DNA of 64,000 nt from Pseudomonas sp. H3(2019) (GTDB taxonomy: Bacteria > Pseudomonadota > Gammaproteobacteria > Pseudomonadales > Pseudomonadaceae): the NCBI RefSeq assembly GCF_007713465.1, contig NZ_VMSG01000002.1:248001-312000 (forward strand). The letters run 5' to 3'. Shown one piece after another: positions 13,611 to 53,042 of this stretch (its first letter is position 1; each line of letters opens with the position of its first letter). Below the pieces are notes generated by a model that was not told the origin of the DNA, made no database searches, and was given only the letters and a program-made list of their open reading frames with translations. The position numbers and the translations under genes are program-made.

Positions 13611-13616
13611 AATGCC

Positions 13617-14469: not shown

Positions 14470-15261
14470 TCACGGCAGTGACAGGAGCAGTTGTCGCAAC
14501 GCAAGCGCCAGTTCTTCCGGCAACGGCTGCAGATAGAAGTGGTTGCCACTGAAAACCCGACTCTTGAACGTGCCGCAGGTAGTATGACGCCATGCTGAAA
14601 GCTCGCTGTAATCGACTTCGGGATCATGGGCGCCGCAATAAGCCGTCAGTGCGGTTTTAAGTATGCCGCCAGGCAGCGGCAAATAGGTTTCGATCAATTC
14701 GAAATCAGCACGCAAGCTGGGCAGAAAAACCTCCAGCAAGCCCTCGTCGGCCATTACAGAGTCCGGCGTGCCGCTCAGCGACTGCAGCACGTTCAGAAAC
14801 TGCTCCTTCGGCAGGTCATAAAAGGATCGTCTCCGCGCGGGAAGATGGGGGGCCCTGCGCCCCGAAACAACCACATGACGCAGATGGCTCAAACCATTTG
14901 CCTCGCATTTCCTGGCGATTTCATAAGCCACTGCGGCCCCCATACTGTGCCCGAACAAGGCGAATGGCTCGTCCATGAAAGGCTTCAGCGCCTCGAATAA
15001 CGGATCGATCAGATCCGCCATCTTTGTGTAGGTTGGCTCCTGTCGTCTAGCTTCACGCCCGGGCAACGCCACTCGGCATATCTCGATGTCGTGGCCCAGC
15101 AGACTCCCCCAGCGACTGAAAAATGACGCCCCTCCCCCCGCATGGGCGAAACACAATAGCCTGATTCGATGCGCACCGCGCACGACAGGCATTCTCAGCC
15201 AGGGGGATTGCGGGCTTGCGCGCTCAGCGCCGACGCTATCCGATACCCGCTCCATCAACAT
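14470..15261 (-). CDS. Type II thioesterase (LnmN-like)
   Basis: A 263-aa stand-alone alpha/beta-hydrolase thioesterase of the kind that frees blocked carrier domains in NRPS/PKS systems. LLCFAHAGGGASFFSRW is the oxyanion region, GHSMG at 104-108 gives Ser106, the Asp is in YCGAHDPEV, and the His is in FSGNHFYLQ. In the leinamycin cluster the equivalent gene is lnmN, also following the HMGS homologue. A GGGAGGGGG ribosome site precedes the ATG at 15261. It overlaps the MbtH gene by 7 bp, so expression is surely coupled. Confidence 0.9.
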   Translation of the reverse strand: MLMERVSDSVGAERASPQSPWLRMPVVRGAHRIRLLCFAHAGGGASFFSRWGSLLGHDIEICRVALPGREARRQEPTYTKMADLIDPLFEALKPFMDEPFALFGHSMGAAVAYEIARKCEANGLSHLRHVVVSGRRAPHLPARRRSFYDLPKEQFLNVLQSLSGTPDSVMADEGLLEVFLPSLRADFELIETYLPLPGGILKTALTAYCGAHDPEVDYSELSAWRHTTCGTFKSRVFSGNHFYLQPLPEELALALRQLLLSLP

Positions 15262-15470: not shown

Positions 15471-15504
15471 CCGTTGTCCTTAGAATCCGTTCAAGAGCGC
15501 ATGC

Positions 15505-16737
15505 TCAAATCCATCGATATTTACGGTGGTAGTTTTCAATACCGTCCAACGCGAGCATGCGCTGCCCACTCGGCCTACCGACATGAAATTTTTCTAGCCC
15601 GGCGGTATCGATCTTGCGATGTTCAACCGCCTGCAGACAACGCAGGTTCTCAGTCAAGATCTGCTGATATTCGGCGAAACTCAATAAGTAGCGCTGATCC
15701 AGCCGCCCCTTGATATCCATTTTTGCTAGCGCATCGTGTGAGGATTCGTCGATGGTGACGCTGAAAAATTCCGATGAGCAGCCTGACCCGTACGAAAACA
15801 TGCCGACCCTGGCGCACCCTTGCACAGGGGCGTGGTCGATTGTGCTCGCCAAAGCCAGATAGACCGAAGCCGAGCAAAGGTTACCCACCCGGCTCGGGTA
15901 CTTCAGGGACGGCGAGACGCGTCGCGAAAAGTCGTCCACGATCTGCTCTGGCCGCCAGCCCGAATGCTCACGCATCATTTTGCGGTGACCCGCCTTGACC
16001 AACCCGGAGAATGGTGTGTGCATCGCCAGGTAATTGAAGGTGTCGGTAAAGCTGACGCCATCGACCTTGGAGGTGTAGTCGGCATAGCTGTTGCTGAAAC
16101 AATCCAGATAAGTAAACAGAGAGCCGTCTACATCGGCAATTTCGAAAGTGCTGGTCGGCCGCGCCGAATCCATGGTTTCGAAACTGTAATTGCCGAAGGC
16201 TCCCAGATCGAACCGAGCGATCTGCCCGTCCTCTGCCAGCAGGATCGCCGCCGCCCCGTGGCCTACTGTTGGCTCCATGTATTCCGCACGCTGGTCGACC
16301 AGCGCGACGTCGGTGCCGATGATCAGCACTTTGGCGCCGGGCGCCACTCCCGAAGCCAGATATCCGACGGCCATCTGCACGGCAGCGGTCGAAGCGAAAC
16401 ACGCCTGTTTGACCTCCATGATCCGGCAGTTCCGGCTGAGCCCCAAATGGGCATGGACATAGGATGAAATCGACTTGCTGTAATCAATTCCGGACTCGCT
16501 GCCGATGATCAGTACGGCAATCGCGTTCTTTTCCTCTTCCGACATCTGCTCGAGGATGGGAAGCGCCGCGTTGACGGCATTGGTGATCGGATCCTCGAAC
16601 GGCAGCGCGACGGCGCGCTCCATCATCATCAGATTATCCAGCCGGGCGCTATCCAGTCCGCGCGCTTCAAACAACGTCGCCACCGGGATCTGGGCGATGC
16701 CGCAATACACATTCAACGCTTCAATGCCAACGTGCAT
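15505..16737 (-). CDS. HMG-CoA synthase homologue for beta-branching (LnmM-like)
   Basis: A 410-aa HMGS-family enzyme of the polyketide beta-branching type. It adds the alpha-carbon of an acyl-ACP to the beta-keto group of a carrier-bound chain. The catalytic set is intact: Glu81 in GSESGID, Cys113 in KQACFAST, His240 in LAMHTPFSG. Normal partners are a donor ACP (gene just upstream) and one or two crotonase-type dehydratase/decarboxylases, none of which I find here. The donor is probably propionyl-ACP rather than acetyl-ACP, because an LnmK homologue replaces the usual decarboxylating KS. GGGGGA precedes the ATG; the ACP gene ends 9 bp upstream. Confidence 0.93.
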   Translation of the reverse strand: MHVGIEALNVYCGIAQIPVATLFEARGLDSARLDNLMMMERAVALPFEDPITNAVNAALPILEQMSEEEKNAIAVLIIGSESGIDYSKSISSYVHAHLGLSRNCRIMEVKQACFASTAAVQMAVGYLASGVAPGAKVLIIGTDVALVDQRAEYMEPTVGHGAAAILLAEDGQIARFDLGAFGNYSFETMDSARPTSTFEIADVDGSLFTYLDCFSNSYADYTSKVDGVSFTDTFNYLAMHTPFSGLVKAGHRKMMREHSGWRPEQIVDDFSRRVSPSLKYPSRVGNLCSASVYLALASTIDHAPVQGCARVGMFSYGSGCSSEFFSVTIDESSHDALAKMDIKGRLDQRYLLSFAEYQQILTENLRCLQAVEHRKIDTAGLEKFHVGRPSGQRMLALDGIENYHRKYRWI

Positions 16738-16746
16738 AGTTCCCCC

Positions 16747-16992
16747 TTATCGCTCACAGGCTGCGCACAGATAATCAATCAAGGCATCAATATCCTTGAG
16801 CGCGCTGAAGTCGGCCAACGGCAACTTCAACTTCAACTTCTGCAGTAACGTCGCGATGATTTCGACCCGATCCACCGAGTCGGCACCCAGGTCCCTGATA
16901 TGTCGATCGCCACGGATCTCGTCAGTACGCACACTGGGCAGAATTGAAACGATGACGTCTTTAACCGCGTTTGCTATGTCTGTTCTATTCAT
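16747..16992 (-). CDS. Discrete donor acyl carrier protein (LnmL-like)
   Basis: An 81-aa free ACP. The phosphopantetheine attachment motif is GADSVDR with Ser39; helix II (VEIIATLLQKLKLKLPL) has the usual amphipathic pattern. Its place between the LnmK-like enzyme and the HMGS homologue marks it as the donor carrier: it should receive methylmalonyl, keep propionyl after decarboxylation, and present it to the HMGS. It needs a phosphopantetheinyl transferase, not encoded in this window. The gaps to its neighbours are short (9 and 16 bp), consistent with one operon. Confidence 0.92.
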   Translation of the reverse strand: MNRTDIANAVKDVIVSILPSVRTDEIRGDRHIRDLGADSVDRVEIIATLLQKLKLKLPLADFSALKDIDALIDYLCAACER

Positions 16993-17008
16993 TATCTGGC
17001 ACTTGCAA

Positions 17009-17959: not shown

Positions 17960-17968
17960 GATCACTCT

Positions 17969-18820
17969 CTACTTTGCAAAGGCCATAGTGTTATCGAGTG
18001 TTTCGACATGGCTCTGCCGAATCACGATCTGGTGCTGCGCCAGGAAGTCCTCGATGAGGTCGTTGCACTCCTGCGCATTGGTCAAGGTCACGAAGTGCCC
18101 GCCAGTTTCGATCATCTCCAAAACCGCACCAGGAATGCTGTCGCGCAGCGTCAGGGTGGTTTGCGCAGAAATGACCGAGTCGTGACGGCCTTGCAGGATC
18201 AGGCTCGGGACAGCGATATCAGCCAGCATCGCGCGCAAATCCGGCAGATGGGTGAATTCATCCAGATACTTGAGCCCCATACGTGGGTCCATGCTCTCGC
18301 AACGCAGCAGCGTCTCCGATACGCGTTGTCGTTCTAGTGTCAGCCGCGGATCGTCGACATGGGAGGCAATGAGTGCCATATCCTCTGCGATCACCTCAAC
18401 CAACGGACTGACCTTGCCATCGCGGTTGCCGACCTTGTAAGAGCTGCAGATCAGCGTCAACGTCGCGCTCAAGTGCGGATAGCGATGCACAAACGCCTGT
18501 GCCTGCAGGCCTCCGGCCGAGATCCCGGCGATATGCATCGGCCCGGTGACCCCCAGCGTTTCCAACACGTGCACAAACAGATCGGCCACGCCGTCGAGTG
18601 ACAAAGGAACCTGTGCATTCGTGGCACCGACGCCGGGATGGTGAATCGTCACCACGCGGAATCGTTCCGACAGGGACTTGAACTGGTAGGCGAATAATCC
18701 GGCGCCTATGTTGAACGGATGCATCAGCAACAACACCGGCCCCTGCCCTGCCGACATCACTTCGACCTGCCCCCCCTTCACCTCGACCAATTGCCGTACG
18801 ACTTCCGGGAAAATTTCCTG
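17969..18820 (-). other. C-terminal thioesterase domain
   Basis: The last ~280 residues form an alpha/beta-hydrolase TE: GISAGG with Ser6589, LQGRHDSVIS for the acid and TGGHFVTL for the His. It should release the chain, most likely as a macrolactam or macrolactone, as in the leinamycin family. Confidence 0.88.
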
Positions 18821-21800
18821 CACCACACGATAGTTTTCTTCGACAACCCGTGATGCAGCATTGGTCGCGCGCTCCAGCATCTTGCGGTCAGGCCGGACCT
18901 CGACGGGGGCGGTGCTCCCGGCGATATCAAGCAGGTGGAATCGCGCTTCGGAACGTGCCGCATTCGAGTCGTCGGCGGTCAACAGCAAGACGTGGGCATC
19001 GGATTGGAACAGGGCTACCAGCCGATCGGCCAATTCGCATACCACTGTGAAATTCAGTCCGACCGGAATTGCCAGGCGGATGCATTGATTCAGCGACTCG
19101 TCGCCCGGGCTGGCCAGATGACGCGCAGCCCGAATACCGGTTTCGCGGTAAATCCAGGCAAGGCAGGATTCCACCGGATACGCGGCACCGCGGTACCGAG
19201 GCATTGCGGACACATCGAGCAAGACGCAGTGCGTGCCCGGCATCGCGCCACGCACTGGCGCCCCGGCATCGCGCAGACGCTGCCACAGCTGCGCCACGCA
19301 TTGCATGCGCTGAGTCACCAACTTACGGACCTTGGTTCGATCGCCCAGCACCCTGGCCAGCAGCGAGCGATTCTCCAGATTTAGCTCGTTGCCGCGCAAC
19401 GCGGCGCGCTCATCGATATGAGTCGCGATGCTCGCATCAGACGTCGCGACCAGGCCGCCGTAACTGCAGCCGAAGTCTTTGCTCATACCCATGCTTACCG
19501 CATCCGCCTGTTGCAAAATCTGACCGGCGACATCCCACAGATCCTGTTCAGCAAACCCCTCTTCGTTCTGAATGATGCAAAGCGCGTTCTCCAGCAGACG
19601 GGTCGCGTCCATCACCAGTATCGTGTCATGGCGATGGGCGAGTTCCCGCGCCAGGCGCAGGTTGGCCAGCGAAACGGCACGACCACCACGCGCATTGTTA
19701 CTCAACTCCACCGCGACAAATGCGCAGCCATTGGGGCAGGACAGCAGCTTTTCCTCAAGATCACTCAGATCGAAATTGCCGGAGAACGGTGCGCCCGAAT
19801 CATCGCCAGATTCCGCCGCCACCACCACTTCGCTCAAATCATGATCCATCAGGTTGAAGGTCCAGCTCGGGAACAAGGCATTGCTCAATACCCGGCGACC
19901 GCGTTTAGGCAAGGCGCGGCACAGCATCGCCTCCGCCGTGCGGCCAGACCCTGCCGCCCGCACGAACTTGAACGGTAGTAACGTCTGTTGATCGAGTCGG
20001 TAATCAACGCTTCCTCCAAGTAACTTGGAGCGCATTTCGGCCATACGACCGGAAATGAATCCCGCCTCAAGCTCCGACCAGGAATCCGTCATCAAATCGT
20101 ACGGCACCTCACCGGGCGCCAGGCGTACCGGGTTATAGCCGACGGCGCGTAATTGCCTTTCGCGCAGCCCCACTTGTGTGTCAGGAAGCGCTTGGGTTTC
20201 GACCTCCAGAGCCTCTTGCACTTCAGCAACGGCTACAGGGGTATCGCCCGCCTTGGGACTCGCGATCATAAGCAGAATGTCGGATACCGGGGTGCTGTCG
20301 GCCTCATCGGCGCGACACAGATAGACCGGCAGGTTGGTCGGTGCGAACTTGTTCTTGAACTGCACATTGCCGTCGTTGTTGACCAGGCCCAGTTCGCGCA
20401 GCTCTTGCAGAGTGCGCTCGGCCTGCACATCGGCATTGGCCGAATCGCAAACCTTGACGCCAAAAGTGCCGCCGAAGCTGAAGAAGGTATCGCCCTCGGC
20501 AATCCGCTGCTCAAAGATCTTGGCAATGGCGAATTCCAGGCCGCCCGCCGGCGCCTGCGCGCCATAGAACTCCAGGTCCAGCAGATAACCGTTCTCGGAC
20601 GGGATATGCGTCACGATGATGGCGTTGGCCAGCGTGTCATCGACAAAGGTCAGGAACATGCGATGACGTTCGGCCAACACACCTGCTCCGATTTCGGCTC
20701 GCACCGTCGCCACATAAGGATTGACCATTTGCTTGGTGCTGGCCCACTGGTCGATCACCGCAACAATCTGCTGATCGATGGCCGGATCGCTGCCGACGCG
20801 GTATTCCTCGGTACGGCACTGGCCACTGGCTTCGAACTTGTTCACCAGATAACGCAACTTGCGCATTTTGCTGCCCGACAGTGTGAATTCGGCGAGGTTT
20901 TCCAGTCGCTGCACCACGCCGAACGGCGTGGCCGTAATGGCGATATCCCCAGCCCGTTCCAGACGCATCAGCGACAGGAAGTTGGCTTTCATCCCGTGTT
21001 CGCGACCAAACTCGATGTACTCCTGCGCCAACTCCGGCGCGTAGTCCTCGGTACCGACATAACTGAACGAAAACAGCACATCCCCTGCTTGGGAACAGTT
21101 GAAATAACCCAAGCGCCGTTTGCCAATGAAGACATAGGGCGCAATGTCCCGTCCGGGCAACCCGCCTTCCTTACCATGCAGCAGGTGCAATTGCCGCACG
21201 GTCTCGTCCAGCTCGGGCCATTTCGGCAGACTCTGCTTCTTGACGAACAGCGCCTGACGATCGTCGATCGGCGTCTCCGACAATGGGCTTGCGTCGTGCG
21301 CCACCTCATTACTCGATGCCACCACGCCGCTCACGTCGCTATCCCCCAAGAACGCCGCGAGGGCTGCAATGGTCGTCATATCGAACAACAAGCTCTTCTT
21401 CAACGGACCGAACTCGCCTTCCAGCGCGCTGATCACTCGCAACATGTCAAACGACGTCATCCATTGCGAAAACGCCTGCTCGGGGGCGGGCTCTCGCTCC
21501 AGGGTGCGCTCAATCAGTCCGAAGAGGCGCTGTTCCAGCGATTCGCCCGGCGCCGGAATAACCTCGGCCTCGACAGTTGTTTCCCTGTCTGCCACTGCCG
21601 GTGCGGCAGCAGGCTGTTCGGCGATGCCCGCAGTGGTACAGGCACGTTGCTCGCAGTAGTCCGTCAGTAGCTCGACCGTATTGTGTTCATACACCTGCGC
21701 AGCTTGCACATCCCAGCCAAAACGCTGGTTCAGACGGCGGATCAACTGGATGCCGAAGATTGAATCCAGCCCCAGGTCGACGAACGGAACGGTCTCGTCG

Positions 21801-41200: not shown

Positions 41201-44200
41201 ATCACCTGTTGCAGCAGTGCGAGGCGATCCAGCCAGCTGTTCGATGCCTGTCCGGCGTCCAGGTCGCAAAGGTCGATCCAGCCTGCAATGGGGACCTGGC
41301 TCCGTATCAGCTCAGCCAGTTGCGTCCGGGTACGCTCGATGCCGACGGCCCTGTCCGCGTCACCGCTCTGTACGTCGATGCCTAACACGCTTGCCGTCTG
41401 AGGGCCTAGCCGCTCCACCAGACGTCGAGCCATGTCCAGGCTGCCTTCAGAGGCCAGGCAGACGATGCGCCCGGTCAACAGCGGTGCCATACCAGCGCCG
41501 CCAACCTCTTGCCGCCAGGCCTGCGCAAACAGTGGCATGTCATCAGTCAACGGCTGCGCCGCTATGGGCGCCGCCTGCGGCGCCAGCCAGCAACGTTGCT
41601 GCGCGAACGGATAAATCGGCAGAGATGTCAGCCCGCAACGCACAGGGCGCTGCAGTTGGCTCCAGTCGGCCTCACCACCCGCCACCCAATAGCGCGCCAG
41701 CTGCCGCAGGGCGGCCCGGTCGCTCGCCAGTTCAGGACAGGACGATGCCGGTTCACGAGCATCGTCGGCATTGGCGCTCAGCCAGGCCGACGGTCTGTCT
41801 TGCAGGAACGCCTCCAGCTCGTCGCGCAGTTGCGCAACGCTATCGACCACCAGAGCCAGCCGGTGCTTCATTGGCTCCCGGCCGATTTGTGCGGTGTAAG
41901 CAAGATCTGCCAGGCGTTGCGGTAGATCGAGTATCTCCAACCAGTGGCCGGCCAGGCGGCGCAACGCATCCGAGGTCTTGGCCGATATCAGGATCAACTG
42001 CGGCGCGTCATCGTTCATACCGACCGTTTCAACTGCGTCGAAGGACTCTACGATCAAGTGACCATTCGCCCCACCCGCCCCGAACGAACTGATGCCGGCG
42101 CGTCGCGGTGCACCGCCTTGCGTGATCCAGTCCGCGCTCAAGCGCTGCAGGCGGAATGGAGCGCTTTCCCAGGCGATGTTCGGGTTGAGTGCTTGCGCAT
42201 GTAACGAGCAGGCAAACCGCCGATGCTTCATCTGCAACACCAACTTGGTCAGCCCGGCAATGCCGGCGGCGGCTTCCAGGTGGCCAATCTGCGACTTCAC
42301 GGAGCCGATCGCGCACGCACCGGCTGCCAGGCCGGAACCCTCGAAGGCATAGGTCAGCCCGTTGATTTCCACCGGGTCGCCAAGCGCCGTGCCGGTGCCA
42401 TGCGCCTCTATGTAGGAAATACTGCCGGACTCAACCTGCGCGTCTTGCAGTGCGCTGCGGATCAGGCGAGCGTGGGCCAGCGGATTAGGCACCATGTAGC
42501 CATTGGTTCGGCCACCATGGTTGATCGCACTCCCCTTGATAACCGCATGAATACGGTCGCCATCGGCCAGGGCTGCGTGCAACGGCTTGAGCAATACGGC
42601 GCCCGCGCCTTCCCCGGGAATGAACCCGTCGCCGCCGGCACCGAAGCTACGGCAACGGTGGTCGCTGGATACCATCTTCAGCCGATCGAGGGCAATGTAC
42701 TTGTCCGGGTGCAGGCTCAGATTGACCCCGCCTGCCAGCGCGACCGCGCACTCGCCACGACGCAGGCTTTGAATCGCCAGGTGAATGGCCGTCAGTGAAG
42801 ACGAGCACATTGTATCGACGGTCAGGCTCGGCCCTTGCGCGCCGAGGAAGTAGGACACCCGGTTGGCGATGTCGGCAAGCGCAGAGCCGGATGACACAGG
42901 CCCTCCGCGCAGCGTCTGCTCCACCCCGAAGTAGTGATACTCGCTGTACATCGAACCGACGAAAACCCCGCACCCAGCTTCATGGGCGCGACGCAAACGC
43001 TCTGCTCCGTAGCCGGCATCTTCCAGGGTGTGCCACATGACCTGCATGAACAAACGGGTCTGTGGGTCGAGCAGATCCGCGTCACGCGGAGAAATGTTGA
43101 AGAACAGCGGATCGAACAGATCGACCCGATCCAGAAAGCCTCCCCACATCAGCTCGACAGGCCAACCTGTCTCGGTGCGCTCTGGCGGAAGTTGCCGGAT
43201 GCAATCGGTGCCAGCCTCGAGATTGGCCCAGAACCGGTTGAGGTTATCGGCGCCGGGGTAACGCCCGGCGATGCCGATGATCGCGATATCCAAGTCGGGA
43301 CGCTGTCCCGCGTCACTCACCGGCCCAGTCGCCGGTGCCGTGTCCAAATGCCGCCGCAAGGCCTGCCCATGTCGATCGCTCAACGCCCGGGCTACCGAGC
43401 GCAGATCGGCATGTTCGAATAGCAATGTCTTGGAAACGCCGCCAAGATCGCGTGTCAGCATCGCGTTGATGTCGGTCACGATCAGCGACGACAACCCCAG
43501 GTGTTCGAGGGGCTGCTCGGCACGCACGCGCTCGACCGGCAAGCCGGAACATTCGGCATACAGGCCGCACAGGTAGCGCTCAGCGGCGGCCTGCACATCG
43601 TGGGGCGCCTCCGTGTGTTCATCAGCGGCCTTGGATCGCTCGGCATGGTCCAGCCAGTGGCTATCGCCTGAGAACGGGTATGTCGGCAGTGACACGCGCC
43701 GAGGCGGTCGTCCCTGCCATAGGTTTTCCCAGTCAACCCGCGTGCCGGTAAGCCAGCGCGCGCAGACTTCGTGCGGATGTACGGGAGCGACGGCCTCGTC
43801 AGGCTGGTCCGTTTCAACGTGTCCAAGTGCATAAGCGGCATCGTCCCGGCGCTGCAAATAGGCCGTGAGCCCGCGCCGCAGATCCGACAGGGTGCGGCAA
43901 CGCAATAGAAGACGATGGCCCATATCGACACGCCCTGTCTGCAGGGTATAGGCAAGCGCGTCCAGGGGCGTTTCGATTTCGTTCGCCAACTGCTCCAACA
44001 CTGCCTGGGCCAAGCTATCCAACTGTGCCACGCTGGCAGCGGACAATGGCACGGCCAGCATTTCATCCCCCAGCCTCGACAACCCGCCTTCGCTGCGCGT
44101 ACTCGGTGCCGCGCGCAACAGCGCAAAAGCATGGGTACCTGATGCCCCCACGGCGTTGATCAGCGCGGTGTGCCCCGACCAACGCTCGACCTGTTCGGCG

Positions 44201-47200
44201 ACACGCAAAATGCTCCCCTGCAAGGCGCTCAGCCTGTGCGCAGGATCAGCCAACAGCGTGGGGGCGACCTCACCATGGCGCATCTGCAGCAGTACCTTGA
44301 TCACCTGCGCCATTCCGGCTGCCGCCTCAAGGTGACCGATATTCGGTTTGAGCGTGCCAATGGTCAGCTCGCGCCCACGCGTCGAGAACACCTGCTCCAG
44401 CGCTTCAAGTTCGGCACTGTCGGCGATGCTGGCCCCGGCCGCCGCGCACTCGACATAATCGACCTCTTGCACGCTGACACCCGCGCCGTCGAGTAACGCA
44501 CTCAACGAACCGGCCAACGCGGCCGAATCAGGTGCGCCGTAACGCGCCACCTTGCCTGCATGCACGACATGGCAAGCGTCCAGCAAGGCATAGGTGTGAT
44601 CATTCCCGAGTTGCGCCGCAGCCTGCGGACGCAGCAAAACAGCGCTGCATCCCTCTCCTGGCGTCCACCCCGAGGCCTCACCATCGAACGCACAGGGGAC
44701 GCTCTGCCCAGACAACAGGTTCAGCCCTGTCAACAGCCCTGCGTGATACGGATGAGCAATCAGATTGACCGCTGCCACGATTGCGGCATCGCATTGCCCG
44801 CTGTCCAGGCTGTTCTTCGCCAATTGCAGCGCGCTCAACGAAGACGAACACGAGGTATTGACGGCCAGGCTCGGACCGTTGAAATCGAAGAAATGCGAAA
44901 TGCGGTTGGCTATATCGGAAGCCGAGCCCGCCACCGCAGCCAACCCGCTATCACGCCATGTGTCGGCGCCCTGCTGCTGGTAGTCGTGCCACATCACCGC
45001 CACAAAGACACCGACCCTGGGCGCCTGGTTGCGCAATGACCGGGCGGTATGACCCGCATCCTCCAGGCATGCCCACACCGTTTGCAGCAACAGTCGGGTC
45101 TGTGGATCAAGTGTTTTGGCCTCGCGGGGCGAAACATGGAAAAGCGCGTGATCGAACTGATCGATCCTGTTTATGAAGCCTCCCTGCAAATCGGGAAACT
45201 GCGCTGCCCATTCGCGTGTACTCGGCACGGAGCCGATCGCGCGTCGACCGTCGCGCAAGCATTGCCACAGCTTGTCAGGCGTATCGGCGCAAGCAAATTG
45301 CCCCGCCATACCGATAATCGCCACCGGTGCGGTGATAGTGGTCGATGCCGGCGAGGCCGCGGGTGCCGCCTCCCCGAACCATGGCACGGCATGACCGCCA
45401 CCCGGCGTCCTCGCCATGCTTCCTCCCAGGAACCCATACAGGAACCCATGGGACTCGCTCAGGCAGAAAGCTGCGCGCAAGGCATCAACATCCATCGCGC
45501 CTATGCCACACAGACCAATGCGGCTGTCAACCTGTCCCATGCTCAACAGCTGGGCCATATGCCCGGCTTCCAGCTGCAGATAGCGTTGGCTCTGGTCGCC
45601 GTACAGCGGCTCGATTCCCTTGCTTTCGCCAATCAGGAACAGGCCGATGGCGGCGCGATCGTACAAGGGCCGGTTATAGTAGAAATGCTGCTCGCGGTTC
45701 AGTCCGTGGGCATCGTCGACGCGCACCAACCGATGTTGCAGCGGATGGTAGTAGTACCCCCCCTCCTCCAGCCCGGTCACTGCGCCAGCTTTGACGTGCA
45801 GATAGGTCTGCACCGCGTAGGTGCTACCAGCCGAAGCATACAAGGAGGCCTTACCGTCATCGCGGCTGACCGTGCGCAACAGGCCCAGCAGACGGCTCAT
45901 ATCCTCAAGTGCGATGGGCGCCGCGCCGAACTCCCGATGGCTGGCACGCCAGTCATAGTAGTCATCATGCAGCACCCTTTCCGGCAGAGCGACGGACGAT
46001 AAGGCCGCAGCGCAGACACGCAGATTCTGTTGGCGCGCCTTGAACTCAGACACGGCCCCGGCGTCAAGCAGGTCAACCGCAACCGGTTTCTGCGCAGGGC
46101 CGACCGCAGCATCGCCACGCGGATCGTGAGCCGGCACCGGTGTTGGAACGGGCTCCGCAATCGGCCCGGACAGCAAGCCATGCAACACTCGCGCAATGCC
46201 TTCCACACTCGCATGGGCCACCAACGCAGAAACCGGTACGCGGGTTCCGTACTGTCGCTGCAAGGCGTTCGAAACCTGAATCATGGTGAATGAAGACGCC
46301 CCCAGATCCCACAAGTCGGCACTGTGGGCCACAACCGTCAGCGACAACTGCTCGGCGAATAGACCTTCAAGCACCGTGCGTAAGGTCTCCTCGCTCGGTC
46401 CAGTCTGTGCAATCGGCTGTGCCGTCACGGGTGAGGCGTCCTCTTCCCGCGGAATCGGCCAGGGCAGTGCTGCGCGATCGACCTTACCGTTCGAAGTGCA
46501 TGGCAGCGCATCGATGAAGCAGATGAAGTTGGGCACCATATAGACGGGCAAAGTCTTTGCGACATGTTCGCGCAGCGTTTTGACGCCCGGTCGCTCCGAC
46601 CTGGCAATGACATAGGCCACCAGCTTCCGATCCCCGGTATGGTCGTCTCGAGCCAGTGTCAGTGCCTCCTTGACGCCAGGGTGCGAGCGCAACTGGAAGT
46701 CGATCTCTTCCAGCTCGACCCGATTACCACGAATTTTGACCTGACCGTCGATGCGGCCGATGAAGGTCAGGTTGCCGTCTGGCAGATAGGCTGCGCGGTC
46801 GCCTGTGCGGTATAGCCGCTGGCCAGGAGTGCGGCTGTAAGGGTCGGGAATGAAGCTTGCCGCAGTCAGCGTCGAGCGTCTCCAATAGCCCACGCTCAGA
46901 CAATCACCGCCAATAAACAGGTCGCCCTCTACGCCCACTGGACAGGGGTCGAGTGCATCATCCAGTACGTGGTAGCGCGAATTGTCGATCGGCACGCCAT
47001 AGGGAATGCTGCGCCAGGTCGGATCGATCGCACCGACGTGAAAGTAATTCGACCACACAGTGGCTTCAGTTGCGCCGCCCAGGTTGATAATCCGCGCATA
47101 TGGGAAAACGCCACGCACCTCATCGGGCAAACTCAGCGGGGTAAAATCGCCGCTCAGGAATACCACCCGAAGATGGCCGCCCTCCCCGGTCATCCGGGTC

Positions 47201-50200
47201 TGCGTCAACAGTGGGCTGAGTTGATGCAACGCTGCCGGCGATGAGTTCCAGAAACTGATCGGGTGGCGTAGCAGAATATCCATCAACAGCCCGGGATCCT
47301 TACGCTCGCAAACGTCTGCAATGTAAAGCCCGGCACCGCAGCCCAGAAGCCCGAACAGATCGAAGACCGACAGATCGAACCCGAGAGAGGCTACCGCCAG
47401 ACCGACGTCGTCCGGCCCGAAGGCAAAGTTCTTGTTTGCCCAATTGAGCAGGTTGAGCAGAGCCTTGTGCGCGACCAGCACGCCTTTGGGTTTTCCGGTA
47501 CTGCCCGAGGTATAGATAATGTAGGCAGAGCTGTCCACGCGTGCCGTGCGCTGCGGATCACGCTGCGCACGCGAGTCATCGCCTGGGCATGTCTGCCCTA
47601 ACCCGAACACCCGGCATGGCAGCCCGGCGGTGTCCGGTCCATCGAGTGACTCAACGATCATGTGCCGCGCACCGGCATCGCTAAGGATGGTCTCCATTCG
47701 CTCCTTGGGCAGGCCGGGATCAAGCGGCAGGTAGGCGCCGCCCGCCTTGTGCACCGCCAGCACTGCAGCGACCATCAACGGACTTGGCTGCACGCTGATG
47801 GCCACAAGCACTTCAGGACCGACGCCTGCGTCTTTCAATTGCCAGGCGATGTAGTTGGCGAAGCGATTGAGTTCGGCGAAATTCATATCGCCATGCTTGC
47901 CCCGCAACGCGATGGCCAGCGGGCGGATTCGCGCTTGCGACTCAATGAACTGATAAGGCAGAAGGTCTGTTTCGTAGGCCGCCTCTGTATCGTTCCAGGC
48001 ATACAGAATGGTTTCGCGTTCCGATTGACTCATGCCTGTACATGCTGCTTCGGCGCCCACATGCTCCCAGTCGTCAGCGCAAGCCAGCGTCTCGATCAAG
48101 TGCTGGTATTCAGCGAACATGGTGCGTAACTGTCCGGCTTCGAAATCGCCCTCCACCGCATCCCAATAAAAATGCAGCGTGTCCGACTCCAGCACGCTGA
48201 TGGCGTCAAGCGACACATCTGGCGTATAGGTGATCCACGGTCCGACACTCACCTCGGTAGGCACGTCTGGCAACTGCCCGTCAAAAATGCCGGTGTAAAC
48301 CACCGGTAAAGCGAAAGCATCGTCTCGCCGATGCTTCATGACCTTCTTGCGCAGCTCCGCCAGCCCCGATGCAGACACCAAGGGCGGCTCTGCATTGAAG
48401 TCCGCCTGATGCCGCCGTGCGCGTTCAAGCAGAGAACACGCGGCGGCGGCGCGCAACCAACTCAAGCCGGTGTATTCGCCCGGCCGATAGGCATTGTATG
48501 CAGCACTCCAGCGCACCACCGTTATCGAGAAGTCGCGTTTCTGATAACCGGCCAGCACCGTCATGAACGCTGCACTGAGCAGTGCATCTGCCGACAAGTT
48601 GTGCTGCTGTAATCGCTGCTGCACCCGTGCCCACCGATCAACTCGCCCTTCCAGACGTACGCGCAGACGCTCGACCGGACGCAACTCGACCGGCTTGAGC
48701 ACCGGACCGGCGGGAAGGTCTTGCAGCCGCTGCACCCAATATGCGCGCGCAGCATCACTCACCGGAGACATATGAACCAAGTCGCGCGCGCGCTCAAAAT
48801 CGGTGTGAGATATCGACGTTGGCAATATGTACGAAGGGTCGGCATACAAACAGAGCAACTCACGCGCCAGACGCAGAATGCTGACGGCATCCACTAATGC
48901 CAGATCAATTGCGCAATGCACCGTCGCCACATCGCCGCCGTTCGTTGTCACGCGAATATCGAACGGTGGCCAGTGGTCGAGCGCAAAGCTCTTCCCCGCC
49001 ATGCCATCGCGCAACGCGGCGATGGCACCCGCGCCATCCGCCACAGTCGACAGGTCGTAAACCGGGATGCAGAGCCCTTTCGGCGCAGGCGCCAGCACAT
49101 GCAACAGCCCATCGCTGCCATAAACGCTATGCAGCACCTCGTAATGGCCTATCAGCTGCTGCCAGGCGTTCTCCAAACGCTCCAGAGCGAAATTACGCAC
49201 CTGGAAACTCTGGTAGACCTGGCACCCTTCGTCACCGAGTGTGCGCGCCACCCAATAGGCCTGTTGCAGATCGCTGGGTTGCCTGGAGTGCAGGTTGCCG
49301 CACCGGCCGTGAAAGCTGTGCAGGCCATTGATGAAATGCGCGAACAAGGCGTCTGCCAGATGCTGCGGAAAATACCGCTCATCGATATCCCAATGCACCT
49401 GCAGGGCGCCTTCTTCTTCCTTGATTTCGTGTTCCAGATACACACCGGACGTCACATTGCTCTCATGGCAAAGCAACTGCTCGAAGCTTGGCCCATGCTC
49501 AAACTGATCCGCCAAGTCCAACAGGCTGGAAAACACTACCGGTAATGGAGGCACGGCGTGCCCGCCGGCCTGCTTGCGCAACTGCCTGACGGCAACCACC
49601 CCGTCCACTCCGGCATGGCCGATGTCTTGCCACACGGCACGATGAGTCTGGCGCGCATAATCTTCGGCGGAGTCTCCTGGCACACCTGCGACAAACACCA
49701 TGCTGCCGGTAAACGGCCCAACCAGGCCTCGCGCCTGGCGCTCCAGCCAAGGCCGGTTATTGGTCGTCAACACCAATGAAAACGGCTGCTCGGGGCCGGT
49801 CCGATACAATGCCTGTGCAAAGACGCTGAGCACCAGGGATGACGGTGACACCTCCAATCGGGTGGCCAGTTGTTTCAACGCCTGCCAGATCGGCGCCGCA
49901 ATGCGCGCCCGCAAGCTGCGTCGGACACTCTCGCTGCCGGTCGGCCTCGGTTGTGCCAAAAGACAAGCAGGCGCACCAGGGAGGTTGCTCAGCCGCTTCC
50001 CCCAGTAGGCAAGATCAGCGTGGAAACTGTCGTCACGTGTGCGTGCCTCCAGCCCCTCCAGCGCCCGGCTCAAATCCAGGCTGATCGTCGGCAACGGTGA
50101 ATCAGGGTGGTGGTAGCTGCGCCACCATTGTTGCAGCAAAATTGCCAGTCCGATGCCATCGGTCAGCATGCCATCAATGCAGAAATGTACGTGCACAGCC

Positions 50201-50901
50201 CCCTGCGTCAGGGTGGCTTCGATGGAAAAGTAAGGGGGGGCATCAGCGCGAAAACGTGTGCCGCACAGGCGGGCACGTACCCTATCCAGATGTATCTGCA
50301 ATGTCGCGGGCGTAAATTCACGCGCGTCATGGACTGCGATGCCCCACGGGGCAGTATGCGGCAGAATACCTTGCGTGCCATCCGGCCCCACCACCACACG
50401 CAGCATCTTCTGATGCGTCACCACCTGCTGCCAGGCACCCTTCAGGCGAGCCACATCCGCGTCCGGCAACACGAACTCTCGGTACAAATTGCAGCCGACA
50501 GCGTCCGGATTTTCTTCGTCCAGTCTCGACATGAAATAGGATTGTTGAATCGGGGTCAGGGCGAATGACCCGCTCCGCCCGTCAGCAGGAATGCTTCCGG
50601 TGACGGGCGCCAAGTGCTCCTGTCGCTGCGCGATATGGGCCTGGATCAAGTCCAGCATGGCCTCCAGCGAAGGGGTTTCGATCAGTTGCTGCATTTCCAT
50701 ACTGATCTGGAATGTCTTCTTTATTGCCAGCCACAAGGACACCATTTGCAACGAAGACAGCCGGTACTGACTGAGTGGCCCGCGCCAATCCAGTGAGTGA
50801 TTGGGCCTGCCAATATCGCCCAATATAGCGGCGACTCTGGCTTTTAAGTCTTCAGTGCCAACACCAGACACCTCCTGCGTAGTTCCTTGCTGGTCAAACA
50901 T
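38281..50901 (-). CDS. Hybrid NRPS-PKS with thiazole module (LnmI-like)
   Basis: A 4206-aa megasynthase. Order by residue: carrier ~17-95 (Ser50); Cy ~112-545; Cy ~550-960; A ~985-1490; PCP ~1537; Ox ~1600-1830; KS ~1860-2280 (non-elongating by sequence); ACP ~2471; KS ~2525-2950; KR core ~3340-3520; ACP ~3648; KS ~3720-4140, ending the protein. It makes a thiazole from Cys and begins polyketide extension. It lacks any AT. The domain series and the split after a terminal KS match LnmI. A GAGGGAAAT ribosome site lies before the ATG. It is followed with a 4-bp overlap by the 6771-aa PKS, so the two proteins are translationally coupled. Confidence 0.95.
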   Translation of the reverse strand: MFDQQGTTQEVSGVGTEDLKARVAAILGDIGRPNHSLDWRGPLSQYRLSSLQMVSLWLAIKKTFQISMEMQQLIETPSLEAMLDLIQAHIAQRQEHLAPVTGSIPADGRSGSFALTPIQQSYFMSRLDEENPDAVGCNLYREFVLPDADVARLKGAWQQVVTHQKMLRVVVGPDGTQGILPHTAPWGIAVHDAREFTPATLQIHLDRVRARLCGTRFRADAPPYFSIEATLTQGAVHVHFCIDGMLTDGIGLAILLQQWWRSYHHPDSPLPTISLDLSRALEGLEARTRDDSFHADLAYWGKRLSNLPGAPACLLAQPRPTGSESVRRSLRARIAAPIWQALKQLATRLEVSPSSLVLSVFAQALYRTGPEQPFSLVLTTNNRPWLERQARGLVGPFTGSMVFVAGVPGDSAEDYARQTHRAVWQDIGHAGVDGVVAVRQLRKQAGGHAVPPLPVVFSSLLDLADQFEHGPSFEQLLCHESNVTSGVYLEHEIKEEEGALQVHWDIDERYFPQHLADALFAHFINGLHSFHGRCGNLHSRQPSDLQQAYWVARTLGDEGCQVYQSFQVRNFALERLENAWQQLIGHYEVLHSVYGSDGLLHVLAPAPKGLCIPVYDLSTVADGAGAIAALRDGMAGKSFALDHWPPFDIRVTTNGGDVATVHCAIDLALVDAVSILRLARELLCLYADPSYILPTSISHTDFERARDLVHMSPVSDAARAYWVQRLQDLPAGPVLKPVELRPVERLRVRLEGRVDRWARVQQRLQQHNLSADALLSAAFMTVLAGYQKRDFSITVVRWSAAYNAYRPGEYTGLSWLRAAAACSLLERARRHQADFNAEPPLVSASGLAELRKKVMKHRRDDAFALPVVYTGIFDGQLPDVPTEVSVGPWITYTPDVSLDAISVLESDTLHFYWDAVEGDFEAGQLRTMFAEYQHLIETLACADDWEHVGAEAACTGMSQSERETILYAWNDTEAAYETDLLPYQFIESQARIRPLAIALRGKHGDMNFAELNRFANYIAWQLKDAGVGPEVLVAISVQPSPLMVAAVLAVHKAGGAYLPLDPGLPKERMETILSDAGARHMIVESLDGPDTAGLPCRVFGLGQTCPGDDSRAQRDPQRTARVDSSAYIIYTSGSTGKPKGVLVAHKALLNLLNWANKNFAFGPDDVGLAVASLGFDLSVFDLFGLLGCGAGLYIADVCERKDPGLLMDILLRHPISFWNSSPAALHQLSPLLTQTRMTGEGGHLRVVFLSGDFTPLSLPDEVRGVFPYARIINLGGATEATVWSNYFHVGAIDPTWRSIPYGVPIDNSRYHVLDDALDPCPVGVEGDLFIGGDCLSVGYWRRSTLTAASFIPDPYSRTPGQRLYRTGDRAAYLPDGNLTFIGRIDGQVKIRGNRVELEEIDFQLRSHPGVKEALTLARDDHTGDRKLVAYVIARSERPGVKTLREHVAKTLPVYMVPNFICFIDALPCTSNGKVDRAALPWPIPREEDASPVTAQPIAQTGPSEETLRTVLEGLFAEQLSLTVVAHSADLWDLGASSFTMIQVSNALQRQYGTRVPVSALVAHASVEGIARVLHGLLSGPIAEPVPTPVPAHDPRGDAAVGPAQKPVAVDLLDAGAVSEFKARQQNLRVCAAALSSVALPERVLHDDYYDWRASHREFGAAPIALEDMSRLLGLLRTVSRDDGKASLYASAGSTYAVQTYLHVKAGAVTGLEEGGYYYHPLQHRLVRVDDAHGLNREQHFYYNRPLYDRAAIGLFLIGESKGIEPLYGDQSQRYLQLEAGHMAQLLSMGQVDSRIGLCGIGAMDVDALRAAFCLSESHGFLYGFLGGSMARTPGGGHAVPWFGEAAPAASPASTTITAPVAIIGMAGQFACADTPDKLWQCLRDGRRAIGSVPSTREWAAQFPDLQGGFINRIDQFDHALFHVSPREAKTLDPQTRLLLQTVWACLEDAGHTARSLRNQAPRVGVFVAVMWHDYQQQGADTWRDSGLAAVAGSASDIANRISHFFDFNGPSLAVNTSCSSSLSALQLAKNSLDSGQCDAAIVAAVNLIAHPYHAGLLTGLNLLSGQSVPCAFDGEASGWTPGEGCSAVLLRPQAAAQLGNDHTYALLDACHVVHAGKVARYGAPDSAALAGSLSALLDGAGVSVQEVDYVECAAAGASIADSAELEALEQVFSTRGRELTIGTLKPNIGHLEAAAGMAQVIKVLLQMRHGEVAPTLLADPAHRLSALQGSILRVAEQVERWSGHTALINAVGASGTHAFALLRAAPSTRSEGGLSRLGDEMLAVPLSAASVAQLDSLAQAVLEQLANEIETPLDALAYTLQTGRVDMGHRLLLRCRTLSDLRRGLTAYLQRRDDAAYALGHVETDQPDEAVAPVHPHEVCARWLTGTRVDWENLWQGRPPRRVSLPTYPFSGDSHWLDHAERSKAADEHTEAPHDVQAAAERYLCGLYAECSGLPVERVRAEQPLEHLGLSSLIVTDINAMLTRDLGGVSKTLLFEHADLRSVARALSDRHGQALRRHLDTAPATGPVSDAGQRPDLDIAIIGIAGRYPGADNLNRFWANLEAGTDCIRQLPPERTETGWPVELMWGGFLDRVDLFDPLFFNISPRDADLLDPQTRLFMQVMWHTLEDAGYGAERLRRAHEAGCGVFVGSMYSEYHYFGVEQTLRGGPVSSGSALADIANRVSYFLGAQGPSLTVDTMCSSSLTAIHLAIQSLRRGECAVALAGGVNLSLHPDKYIALDRLKMVSSDHRCRSFGAGGDGFIPGEGAGAVLLKPLHAALADGDRIHAVIKGSAINHGGRTNGYMVPNPLAHARLIRSALQDAQVESGSISYIEAHGTGTALGDPVEINGLTYAFEGSGLAAGACAIGSVKSQIGHLEAAAGIAGLTKLVLQMKHRRFACSLHAQALNPNIAWESAPFRLQRLSADWITQGGAPRRAGISSFGAGGANGHLIVESFDAVETVGMNDDAPQLILISAKTSDALRRLAGHWLEILDLPQRLADLAYTAQIGREPMKHRLALVVDSVAQLRDELEAFLQDRPSAWLSANADDAREPASSCPELASDRAALRQLARYWVAGGEADWSQLQRPVRCGLTSLPIYPFAQQRCWLAPQAAPIAAQPLTDDMPLFAQAWRQEVGGAGMAPLLTGRIVCLASEGSLDMARRLVERLGPQTASVLGIDVQSGDADRAVGIERTRTQLAELIRSQVPIAGWIDLCDLDAGQASNSWLDRLALLQQVMVTAPAGQLLRVMHASNGLHSVQGEASNLLGVQMASFIKTLAAEHKKITLRTIDLDPDGGQEIQALLTEWHDVRQSVEVCYRHGQRYVPYLKPIAPVSAETYRLDPDAVYLITGGLRGLGAMIALEWARRGARKLALIGSRALPPRAGWDDPDLPTWQREAVANVRALEAAGAQVMTAASILTDVQRLQSFLADVRRSLGEIRGVIHCAGNGSQGRPAFVHKTPAQIESSFAPKFTGLCCLAEACTPDRLEFFLAFSSISAVVGALGAGVSDYAAANVCMDRFVAHMHSKGQHAYRAVNWPFWAQSSGSDASREACSRLGLEAISNRQGLRLLDRVLALKEHANIVPLPLVSNREIADVMPHFDAVSPHSAAPLPASPGVIAEKRVAAWLMQIFSDMLRIRLSDLDPQAHFSDLGVESVMMVELIHAIEREIGRPLEPSALLDYPTLNELSRYLGVFEIAAQSPSQPPAEHAQALAESAMVPALRHDIAIVGMSGRFPDAPDIETFWNNLKQGHCAVHEVPSSRWDIERFYRPAHQAGKSISKWGGFISGIEDFDPGYFNMSRQEASECDPAIRMMLEESANCLSDAGYAPQELSGKDVGIYIGARMSGYRRRMAGQLGQAGLGGDQNFIAARVAHHFDFCGPCMVVDSACSSALSALQLACQSLALGESALALAGGVDILLDEEPYLEFSEARALSPSGRCRTFDKGADGFVPGEGCGVLLLKRLDAALRDGDPIHAVIRGVAANNDGRTMGLTTPNPKAQSQVIRRALAASGLTAENIGMVEAHGTGTMIGDPIELKALTDVFREHTGREGFCAIGSVKSNVGHLLSAAGIAGLFKAVLCLKHGQLPPTLFCDTPNPRFDFQTSPFYPNTVLRDWPAINGMRAAGISAFGLGGTNVHLIVSSLDAAQSRTAPVRPSLPRPSFQRVRCWLEVDSKTAPAGLSPLRLDFGRQGDVASARSNHSSSNAFAEDSL
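38290..39750 (-). other. Terminal KS of the split module
   Basis: A complete KS (VDSACSSAL, EAHGTGTMIGDP, NVGHLLSAAG) ends the protein. The matching DH-like, ACP, ACP and KR domains are at the start of the next protein, so the chain must cross a protein boundary within one module. Confidence 0.88.
39800..43310 (-). other. KS-KR-ACP module
   Basis: A complete KS (VDTMCSSSL, EAHGTGTALGDP, QIGHLEAAAG) is followed by a KR (GGLRGLGAMIAL; FSSISAVVGA; SDYAAANVCM) and an ACP (DLGVESVMMVEL). It should leave a beta-hydroxyl after the first extension of the thiazolyl starter. Confidence 0.88.
43310..45330 (-). other. Non-elongating KS (KS0) and ACP
   Basis: The KS keeps Cys2018 (NTSCSSSL) and the second His (NIGHLEAAAG). 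The HGTGT motif reads A-A-A-G-A, with Ala2153 in the place of the catalytic His. Decarboxylative condensation should be impossible, so it would only pass the thiazolyl chain to the following ACP (HLGLSSLIVTD). Confidence 0.88.
45420..50570 (-). other. Cy-Cy-A(Cys)-PCP-Ox thiazole module
   Basis: Two heterocyclisation domains stand in tandem. Cy1 has Asp243...Asp248 but Gly at the Ser place (CIDGMLTDGIG); Cy2 has the full DxxxxDxxS (DLALVDAVS, Asp666 to Ser674). The A domain has IIYTSGSTGKPKG and a binding-pocket code I read as D-L-F-N-F-S-L-V-W, close to the cysteine code DLYNLSLIW. The PCP (LGASSFTM) is followed by a SagB/ThcOx-type flavin oxidase domain (GGYYYHP; QLEAGHMAQ), which would oxidise thiazoline to thiazole. 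Confidence 0.9.
50617..50853 (-). other. N-terminal carrier (starter) domain
   Basis: Residues ~17-95 form a carrier domain with the active-site region LSQYRLSSLQMVSL (Ser50); the usual Gly is Arg. It precedes the first Cy domain, so it must bring the starter acyl or aminoacyl group. No adenylation or loading domain is attached. In leinamycin a free A domain and a free PCP do this job; here the PCP appears fused. Confidence 0.75.
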
Positions 50902-53013: not shown

Positions 53014-53042
53014 GGTTAGTCCTTTAGCGTCGGAGTGAAAGA

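What the first reader, a model, noticed from the sequence alone, without database searches (positions are those of the whole stretch)
14470..50901. Leinamycin-type biosynthetic locus in a Pseudomonas
Seen: the minus-strand order NRPS-PKS, giant PKS, LnmK-like, ACP, HMGS-like, MbtH, type II TE reproduces lnmI-J-K-L-M-N with one small insertion. The domain logic also matches: Cys thiazole module, AT-less modules, a module split between the two giants, six competent KSs plus one KS lacking its catalytic His, DUF-SH-TE tail. Known: the leinamycin family (thiazole macrolactams with polyketide sulfur) was defined from actinobacteria. Inference: a Gram-negative branch of the family, with a product likely related to but different from leinamycin.
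Basis: partly seen in the sequence, partly recalled or inferred. Interest (0 to 1): 0.95.

Follow-up and report, generated by a model that had tools for sequence, protein, structure and literature searches.

The report
P450-free leinamycin-family cluster in Pseudomonas
A Pseudomonas genome carries a gene cluster of the leinamycin family, whose described members come from actinobacteria, in a pared-down form: it has no cytochrome P450 gene and brings its own vitamin-B12-dependent mutase, which would supply the building block for the family's sulfur-bearing branch.

Summary
All 7 KS domains match the KS at the same position in LnmI/LnmJ of the leinamycin producer Streptomyces sp. CB01635, each scoring above the best of 29 sampled Pseudomonas KSs. 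The terminal module is KS-ACP-ACP-DUF-SH-TE; its DUF-SH falls with LNM-type proteins. The nearest named relative in the tree is Endozoicomonas sp. G2_1. Shared differences from LNM: no P450 in the cluster, no KR found in the penultimate module, an SDR-mutase pair. A mutase match occurs in 2 of 199 genomes of the genus, this one included. A 2026 paper says every lnm-type cluster identified has a P450. The genome is almost certainly Pseudomonas sp. H3: a 2019 table lists this cluster, to the base, as "Leinamycin 8%". Betaproteobacterial LNM-type J proteins form a second Gram-negative lineage. The product is unknown.

The parts
14470..15261 (-). type II thioesterase (LnmN counterpart by place, 45% over 232 aa to CB01635)
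   Evidence: PF00975 E 1e-46; blastp
15255..15470 (-). MbtH-like protein (no lnm counterpart found; 44% over 59 aa to one in the Endozoicomonas cluster)
   Evidence: PF03621 E 4e-18
15505..16737 (-). HMG-CoA-synthase homologue (LnmM counterpart by place, 59%)
   Evidence: PF08540; TIGR01835 E 1e-68, below its cut-off
16747..16992 (-). discrete donor ACP (LnmL counterpart by place, 53%)
   Evidence: PF00550
17009..17965 (-). LnmK-type acyltransferase/decarboxylase (48%); the Tyr of the PTYL motif is invariant in a 20-row alignment
   Evidence: PF18238 E 3e-73, TIGR04098 (66), PDB 4hzn (17), alignment (23)
17969..38284 (-). J: AT-less PKS, DH-ACP-ACP-KR-KS-ACP-KS-DH-KR-MT-ACP-ACP-KS-DH-ACP-ACP-KS-ACP-ACP-DUF-SH-TE
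17990..18847 (-). thioesterase domain of J
18950..20227 (-). SH (PLP-dependent C-S lyase) domain of J
   Evidence: PF01212; PDB 9cen E 2e-64; tree
20285..21217 (-). DUF domain (LPG_synthase_C match) of J
   Evidence: PF09924
21338..21853 (-). tandem, divergent ACPs of the terminal module
23981..27190 (-). penultimate PKS module KS-DH-ACP-ACP: intact KS and DH motifs but no KR found (LnmJ has one here)
37430..38284 (-). DH at the N-terminus of J, completing the module begun by the last KS of I
38281..50901 (-). I: NRPS-PKS, PCP-Cy-Cy-A-PCP-Ox-KS-ACP-KS-KR-ACP-KS
38485..39744 (-). last KS of I, the upstream half of the split module
44113..45327 (-). KS lacking the first catalytic His (VECAAAGA), same motif in LnmI
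45382..50568 (-). Cy-Cy-A-PCP-Ox: predicted Cys thiazole module, A pocket motifs as in LnmI
51299..51661 (-). SnoaL-like protein (57% to an ORF of the CB01635 lnm region)
   Evidence: PF12680
51675..52115 (-). AHSA1-like protein (50% to one in the Endozoicomonas cluster)
   Evidence: PF08327
52129..53013 (-). DUF6039 protein a (41% to lnm, 52% to Endozoicomonas)
   Evidence: PF19505 E 3e-90
53043..53960 (-). DUF6039 protein b (35% to lnm, 54% to Endozoicomonas)
   Evidence: PF19505 E 7e-91
54266..55024 (+). FabG-like SDR; candidate trans-acting ketoreductase (inferred)
   Evidence: TIGR01830 E 1e-60, below its cut-off; Endozoicomonas 55%
55042..57192 (+). methylmalonyl-CoA mutase, single-chain with B12 domain
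   Evidence: NF006944 1183 bits over cut-off 876; PDB mitochondrial MUT
57077..58153 (+). MeaB, mutase-associated GTPase (true start probably downstream)
   Evidence: NF006958 438 bits over cut-off 329
58300..61392 (-). RND efflux pump, predicted exporter
   Evidence: PF00873
61401..62642 (-). HlyD-type membrane fusion protein
62551..63999 (-). outer-membrane efflux protein; its longest frame starts 12 bases past the window end
   Evidence: script
13395..13637 (+). left copy of a direct repeat that ends in the 3' end of tRNA-Gly; right copy is 7.9-8.2 kb past the window end
   Evidence: 76% over 257 columns

Best explanation
This is a leinamycin-family hybrid NRPS/trans-AT-PKS gene cluster in a Pseudomonas, predicted to make a thiazole-containing macrolactam that would leave the enzyme with a hydropersulfide and a propionyl-derived branch at C-3. 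Shown by sequence: the core LNM parts are present, in LNM module order, from 14470 to about 7 kb past the window end (no discrete LnmP was found). Inferred steps: the stand-alone A domain loads an amino acid onto the N-terminal carrier of I; the Cy-A-PCP-Ox module adds Cys and makes the thiazole; the KS without His is passed over, as I recall its LnmI twin to be; six competent KS modules extend the chain with malonyl units from the trans AT-OX; methylmalonyl-CoA mutase with MeaB makes (R)-methylmalonyl-CoA from succinyl-CoA; the LnmK homologue turns that into propionyl-ACP; HMGS and ECH build the carboxylated beta-branch on the first tandem ACP; DUF adds (thio)cysteine and SH cleaves the C-S bond; TE closes the ring; the RND pump exports it. 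In the penultimate module, where no KR is found, the neighbouring FabG-like SDR likely reduces in trans (weakest step). With no P450 in the cluster, the nascent product would not receive the P450 oxidations of leinamycin.
For: Homologues in the cluster of the LNM producer CB01635: TEII 45%, HMGS 59, ACP 53, LnmK 48, J 45 (best segment, 2153 aa), I 45 (4411 columns), SnoaL 57, DUF6039 41 and 35, AT-OX 57 (443-aa segment), ECH 41, Crp 31. Same domain order except the points named. 7 of 7 KSs match the same position in LNM and group by position. DUF-SH: 73 LNM-type rows and 31 others split by one branch at 100. Tandem ACPs: first and second copies separate in 67 of 67 pairs, this one included. 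Lost-His KS motif shared with LnmI. Mutase: full-length equivalog; PF01642 in 2 of 199 genomes of the genus, the other a partial match. SDR-mutase divergent from the DUF6039 pair in both this cluster and Endozoicomonas. P450: 1 in the whole genome, on another contig; 0 in the Endozoicomonas genome; 36 matches in CB01635, three of them on the lnm contig at 9.3-9.8 and 68.4-69.2 kb.
Against: No expression, product or enzyme data. The loading A domain is 27% identical to the ORF I take for LnmQ, and its best match in the CB01635 stretch is another NRPS (29%); no discrete LnmP homologue was found, so the starter unit is unknown. The trans-KR role of the SDR is guessed from absence and neighbourhood; the module could simply leave a ketone. 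MeaB, PPTase and the RND trio have no counterpart in the Endozoicomonas stretch examined. In the unrooted DUF-SH tree this clade lies nearer than LnmJ to the branch that leads to the non-LNM rows (a fork of support 83 joins them). One published regularity of lnm-type clusters, at least one P450 gene, is not met.
Confidence: 0.85

Rival explanations
1. The penultimate module has no ketoreduction at all: its DH is idle or acts otherwise, the chain keeps a ketone there, and the SDR-mutase pair serves something else.
For: No KR in J residues 3301-6771 by Pfam; Endozoicomonas, P0002 and P0004 also show none. The SDR scores below the FabG equivalog cut-off.
Against: DH catalytic motifs are intact, which suggests a beta-hydroxy substrate; an SDR lies in this cluster and in that of Endozoicomonas; the PfaD-family OX domain is present and would need an enoyl substrate.
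Confidence: 0.4
2. SDR, mutase and MeaB are metabolic passengers unrelated to the assembly line.
For: They are on the opposite strand; MeaB is absent from the Endozoicomonas stretch; no mutase homologue was found in the 80 kb around lnm of CB01635 or in the flanks (up to 10 kb) of 64 LnmK loci (the Endozoicomonas mutase lies about 45 kb off, so those flanks are too short to count).
Against: Same SDR-mutase/DUF6039 divergent arrangement in two distant genera; the mutase product is the substrate of LnmK-type enzymes (PMC9396626, PMC9570651 passages); the family is nearly absent from the genus sample.
Confidence: 0.2
3. The locus is a non-LNM trans-AT PKS that merely carries a DUF-SH didomain, like the other DUF-SH families.
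For: DUF-SH occurs in many non-LNM PKSs (31 of 104 rows here; three other families in PMC8479088).
Against: Position-by-position KS match, terminal module, K-L-M order, AT-OX and ECH all match LNM.
Confidence: 0.03
4. The cluster is a silent or decaying island remnant.
For: Flanking direct repeat and rearranged tRNA site; no expression data.
Against: The 23 cluster reading frames translated have no internal stop, including 20.3 and 12.6 kb genes; catalytic motifs looked at are conserved apart from the one KS His that LnmI lacks too.
Confidence: 0.12

Closest known systems
Leinamycin (lnm) cluster, read here from Streptomyces sp. CB01635, named as an LNM producer in PMC8479088
   Same: I-J-K-L-M-N gene order, module order, lost-His KS, tandem ACP-DUF-SH-TE tail, AT-OX, ECH, Crp-type regulator, two DUF6039 genes, SnoaL gene
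   Different: lnm has two P450 ORFs in the 80 kb read, a KR in the penultimate module and a discrete PCP; no MbtH, SDR, mutase or MeaB counterpart was found there
Unnamed LNM-type cluster of Endozoicomonas sp. G2_1 (NZ_JAGHQT010000003.1)
   Same: Same J domain order incl. KR-less penultimate module; MbtH, AHSA1, DUF6039 pair, SDR, mutase, the 239-aa protein and A domain; no P450 match in that genome
   Different: Three terminal ACPs; no MeaB, PPTase or RND trio found in the 80 kb; J 43% identical (5867 columns)
Guangnanmycin, weishanmycin, largimycin clusters
   Same: Terminal module and sulfur chemistry as described in PMC8479088, PMC7618002, PMC9396626 (gnm, wsm and lrg sequences were not compared by name here)
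   Different: From Streptomyces; P450 genes (PMC13200230); ECH2 domain and second HMGS in wsm and lrg, absent here
Betaproteobacterial LNM-architecture PKS proteins (Burkholderia, Paraburkholderia, Verminephrobacter, Pseudoduganella)
   Same: LNM-type J ending ACP-ACP-DUF-SH-TE
   Different: Separate DUF-SH clade; KR kept in the penultimate module; ECH domain listed in J for the six named Burkholderia, Paraburkholderia and Verminephrobacter proteins. Their clusters were not read, except 17.7 kb of Pseudoduganella

Membership tests
Leinamycin (LNM) family cluster | Terminal module KS-ACP-ACP-DUF-SH-TE (PMC7618002) | tested here: met
Leinamycin (LNM) family cluster | Eight modules in all (PMC7618002) | tested here: met
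   Loading plus Cys modules and six competent KS modules; the seventh KS lacks His exactly as in LnmI, which with LnmJ also has seven KSs. Not counting that KS is my reading
Leinamycin (LNM) family cluster | The two terminal ACPs fall in separate clades (PMC7618002) | tested here: met
   67 of 67 pairs split. Of 73 LNM-type rows six were not counted: three with one terminal ACP found, three with three (Endozoicomonas twice, P0004)
Leinamycin (LNM) family cluster | lnmKLM homologues in that order after J (PMC9396626) | tested here: met
Leinamycin (LNM) family cluster | AT-less PKS served by an LnmG-type discrete AT-OX, and an LnmF-type ECH | tested here: met
   L012 493-2772 and 2754-3527, beyond the window end
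Leinamycin (LNM) family cluster | DUF-SH groups with LNM-type, KSs with LNM KSs | tested here: met
Leinamycin (LNM) family cluster | Reported regularity, not a definition: at least one P450 gene in the cluster (PMC13200230) | tested here: not met
   No P450 haem motif in ORFs at 13.6-72 kb; PF00067 once in the genome, on contig C26
Leinamycin (LNM) family cluster | SH acts as thiocysteine lyase; product has C-3 sulfur and a thiazole or oxazole macrocycle | not testable with these tools
   SKD stretch (PLP lysine, recalled) conserved; no assay
tRNA-integrated genomic island | Direct repeat of the tRNA 3' end at both ends | tested here: met
tRNA-integrated genomic island | Integrase gene | tested here: inconclusive
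   A short ORF beside tRNA-Gly looks by eye like an integrase start; Pfam finds nothing
tRNA-integrated genomic island | Empty site in relatives | tested here: inconclusive
   Synteny with 4 of 4 relatives read breaks at the tRNA-Gly end and near 13.31-13.35 kb, but the two flanks are not neighbours there

The most novel reading that the evidence does not exclude
A gammaproteobacterial, P450-free branch of the leinamycin family that releases the hydropersulfide macrolactam as its finished product, makes its own (R)-methylmalonyl-CoA with a cluster-borne B12 mutase because the host genus has almost none, and has moved one ketoreductase out of the assembly line into a free-standing SDR.
Probability: 0.4. 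Interest if true: 0.78.

Novelty: new variant of a known kind. Interest (0 to 1): 0.62.

Why it matters
LNM-family compounds are antitumour agents whose described members come from actinomycetes. A cluster in a fast-growing, genetically tractable genus makes open questions testable: what DUF does, what the DUF6039 proteins do, whether a P450-free pathway stops at the hydropersulfide, and whether a bacterium whose relatives nearly all lack methylmalonyl-CoA mutase must acquire that supply along with the pathway.

Tried and rejected
Non-LNM DUF-SH family: rejected on KS positions, tail and K-L-M order. Origin from another Pseudomonas trans-AT PKS: rejected, the best of 29 sampled Pseudomonas KSs always scores below the LNM counterpart (those 29 were each a genome's best match to one KS of this cluster among 199 genomes, so KSs close to the other six may have been missed). 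Naming the starter amino acid from the A domain: not possible; the pocket stretch differs from the presumed LnmQ and resembles Endozoicomonas; PDB matches are to many A domains. A clean empty site for the island: not found; tRNA-Cys and tRNA-Leu, which follow tRNA-Gly in G002 and G011, lie on contig C17 here without tRNA-Gly. DUF6039 fold: two-row AlphaFold model, mean pLDDT 61; the 50 Foldseek matches listed of 1373 include chlorite dismutase, sulfur oxygenase reductase and putative monooxygenases with TM-scores 0.20-0.50, too weak for a function. DUF6039 in the family of the Endozoicomonas genome: 1 of 395, that genome itself. Plasmid carriage: LnmK matches 7 plasmid records, six actinobacterial and one weak Roseobacter, none Pseudomonas. 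Literature; three returned more papers than listed (20 of 50, 15 of 22, 25 of 38), so absence from print is not shown.

Full report
OBSERVATION. The window is contig C22:248001-312000 of a 5.86 Mb genome. Pfam and NCBIfam confirm LnmK (PF18238, TIGR04098), donor ACP, HMG-CoA-synthase homologue, MbtH and type II TE. PDB sequence comparison ties the LnmK homologue to the solved LnmK-type enzyme (4hzn, E 2e-93) and the SH domain to a chain called 'Polyketide Synthase Protein' (9cen, E 2e-64) ahead of tyrosine phenol-lyases.

THE CLUSTER IS LARGER THAN REPORTED. Past the window end, on the same contig (L012 = C22:311500-331000), follow an AT-OX protein (759 aa; fabD and PfaD-family models above cut-off), an enoyl-CoA hydratase, a PPTase, a 239-aa protein without Pfam match, a stand-alone A domain and a Crp-type regulator. 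After these come tRNA-Gly and genes that I read as pgsA, uvrC and gacA (by eye; UvrC confirmed). Inside the window, SnoaL, AHSA1 and two DUF6039 genes lie upstream of I, with SDR, methylmalonyl-CoA mutase and MeaB running the other way, then an RND efflux trio.

COMPARISON WITH LEINAMYCIN. PMC8479088 (parts 1 and 3 of 7, and passages) names Streptomyces sp. CB01635 as an LNM producer; its cluster was reached through the LnmK scan (L024) and read over 80 kb. Homologues of TEII, HMGS, ACP, LnmK, J, I, SnoaL, both DUF6039 genes, AT-OX, ECH and Crp are there. I infer gene names LnmN, M, L, K, J, I, G, F, O from order and similarity. The domain order of I equals LnmI (whose N-terminal carrier scores weakly), and J equals LnmJ but for duplicated ACPs, the place of one ACP and a missing KR in the penultimate module. 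The KS without His carries the motif VECAAAGA in both; the skipping of that KS in LNM is recalled and hinted at by reference titles in PMC9570651, not tested.

KS AND SH RELATIONSHIPS. For 7 of 7 KSs the best CB01635 match is the KS at the same position (54-69% identity), always scoring above the best of 29 Pseudomonas KSs (34-54%). In a 70-row tree each groups with its LNM counterpart, support 91-100. In a 104-row DUF-SH tree, 73 rows ending DUF-SH-TE and 31 others are separated by one branch at 100. This protein joins P0002 (79% identical over the searched region, from a source without a name), P0004 and Endozoicomonas in a clade at 100, apart from the clade of Burkholderia, Paraburkholderia, Verminephrobacter and Pseudoduganella. 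The tree is unrooted, and this clade lies nearer than LnmJ to the branch leading to the non-LNM rows (fork of support 83) (quick trees, SH-aLRT only; the two types were assigned with domain models built from this protein). First and second terminal ACPs separate in 67 of 67 two-ACP proteins; six of the 73 LNM-type rows had one or three and were not counted. PMC7618002 (parts 1-2 of 6 read) reports the same for 29 PKSs. No LnmK tree was built.

DISTRIBUTION. LnmK (PF18238) occurs in 1 of 398 genomes of the genus and 2 of 369 of the class, the second being the Endozoicomonas genome by its coordinates. The genome-contig scan gave 64 LnmK loci, mostly actinobacterial; 32 of 64 have an SH domain within the flanks held (some loci are cut short by contig ends). 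The host's own record is left out of that scan.

WHAT IS DIFFERENT. [quoted passage not shown] Here no ORF of 60 aa or more within 13.6-72 kb has the haem motif; the genome has one P450 match, on another contig, and the Endozoicomonas genome none. The CB01635 contig with lnm has P450 matches at 9.3-9.8 and 68.4-69.2 kb. (2) Mutase: single-chain methylmalonyl-CoA mutase, equivalog score well over cut-off, best PDB match the mitochondrial enzyme. PF01642 is found in 2 of 199 genomes of the genus, the other matching positions 5-184 of 512 only. LnmK-type enzymes take methylmalonyl-CoA (PMC9396626 and PMC9570651, passages). That the mutase feeds LnmK is inference; the (R) configuration is recalled. 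(3) No KR in the penultimate module in this protein, P0002, P0004 and Endozoicomonas; P0009 and P0014 also show none, though models built from this protein's KRs could miss divergent ones (Pfam agrees for this protein). A FabG-like SDR sits beside the mutase here and in Endozoicomonas. (4) The loading A domain is 27% identical to the presumed LnmQ and 42% to Endozoicomonas. No discrete LnmP was found; the N-terminal carrier of I may do its job, though LnmI also starts with a carrier-like stretch.

IDENTITY OF THE STRAIN AND PRIOR ART. UvrC is 96% identical to a multispecies Pseudomonas cluster. PMC6906695 (parts 1-2 of 4 and a passage read) lists for Pseudomonas sp. H3, from a heap, cluster 12 'transAT-PKS,NRPS 245,969-338,222, Leinamycin 8%'. 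The low end of J minus 20,000 is 245,969, and the second Met of the A-domain gene plus 20,000 is 338,222; genome sizes are 5,865,301 bp in 49 contigs there and 5,859,860 in 48 here. So this locus is in print as one table row, not discussed in the parts read. PMC8479088 reports that DUF-SH clusters are widespread and names three families besides LNM; its supplementary figures were not available. PMC7930024 (passages) reports an expanded leinamycin family without naming these hosts in the text seen. The founding survey (PMC5748217) is not held.

MOBILITY. A 257-column direct repeat (76%) ending in the tRNA-Gly 3' end flanks the cluster at 13395-13637 and, in window-based coordinates, 71945-72199. 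Synteny with the four relatives read stops at the tRNA-Gly end and at 13.31-13.35 kb, but these flanks are not adjacent in the relatives, and tRNA-Cys and tRNA-Leu lie on another contig. Acquisition at tRNA-Gly followed by rearrangement is the likely reading; an intact integrase was not found beside the tRNA.

VERDICT. Membership in the LNM family is as firm as sequence can make it; activity and product are untested. The new content is the variant: P450-free, mutase-equipped, without a KR in one module, shared with Endozoicomonas.

Noticed in passing
window 13395-13637 and L012:8446-8700: Direct repeat ending in the tRNA-Gly 3' end on both sides of the cluster; tRNA-Cys and tRNA-Leu that follow this tRNA in G002 and G011 are on contig C17 here (L148:9123-9476).
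   Followed up: partly
L012:8322-8555 (-): Short ORF beside tRNA-Gly whose second half looks by eye like the start of a P4-type tyrosine integrase; Pfam finds no match.
   Followed up: partly
window 33845-34057 (J residues about 1410-1480): Weak ACP-like insert between a KS and the next ACP; LnmJ has a weak match at the corresponding place (residues 1460-1522).
   Followed up: no
window 52129-53960: DUF6039 pair with counterparts in lnm and Endozoicomonas; low-confidence model shows two similar alpha/beta halves, weakly matching chlorite dismutase, sulfur oxygenase reductase and putative monooxygenases.
   Followed up: partly
L029, L035, L048, L057: One Planctomycetota MAG (OFTM357) has four LnmK loci with KS domains but no SH or HMGS match in the flanks held, so LnmK may serve other pathways there.
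   Followed up: no
proteins P0046, P0050, P0052, P0056, P0059, P0065; locus L032: Second Gram-negative lineage with LNM-type J proteins (Burkholderia, Verminephrobacter, Paraburkholderia, Pseudoduganella).
   Followed up: partly
window 6994-11232: Two Trans_reg_C proteins with STAND/AAA-type NTPase matches on opposite strands, partly similar in DNA sequence, just outside the cluster.
   Followed up: no
L013:12458-13750: Protein that by eye resembles a cystathionine gamma-lyase/synthase, about 20 kb left of the cluster; PMC8479088 reports such lyases as a source of thiocysteine in the Streptomyces producers.
   Followed up: no
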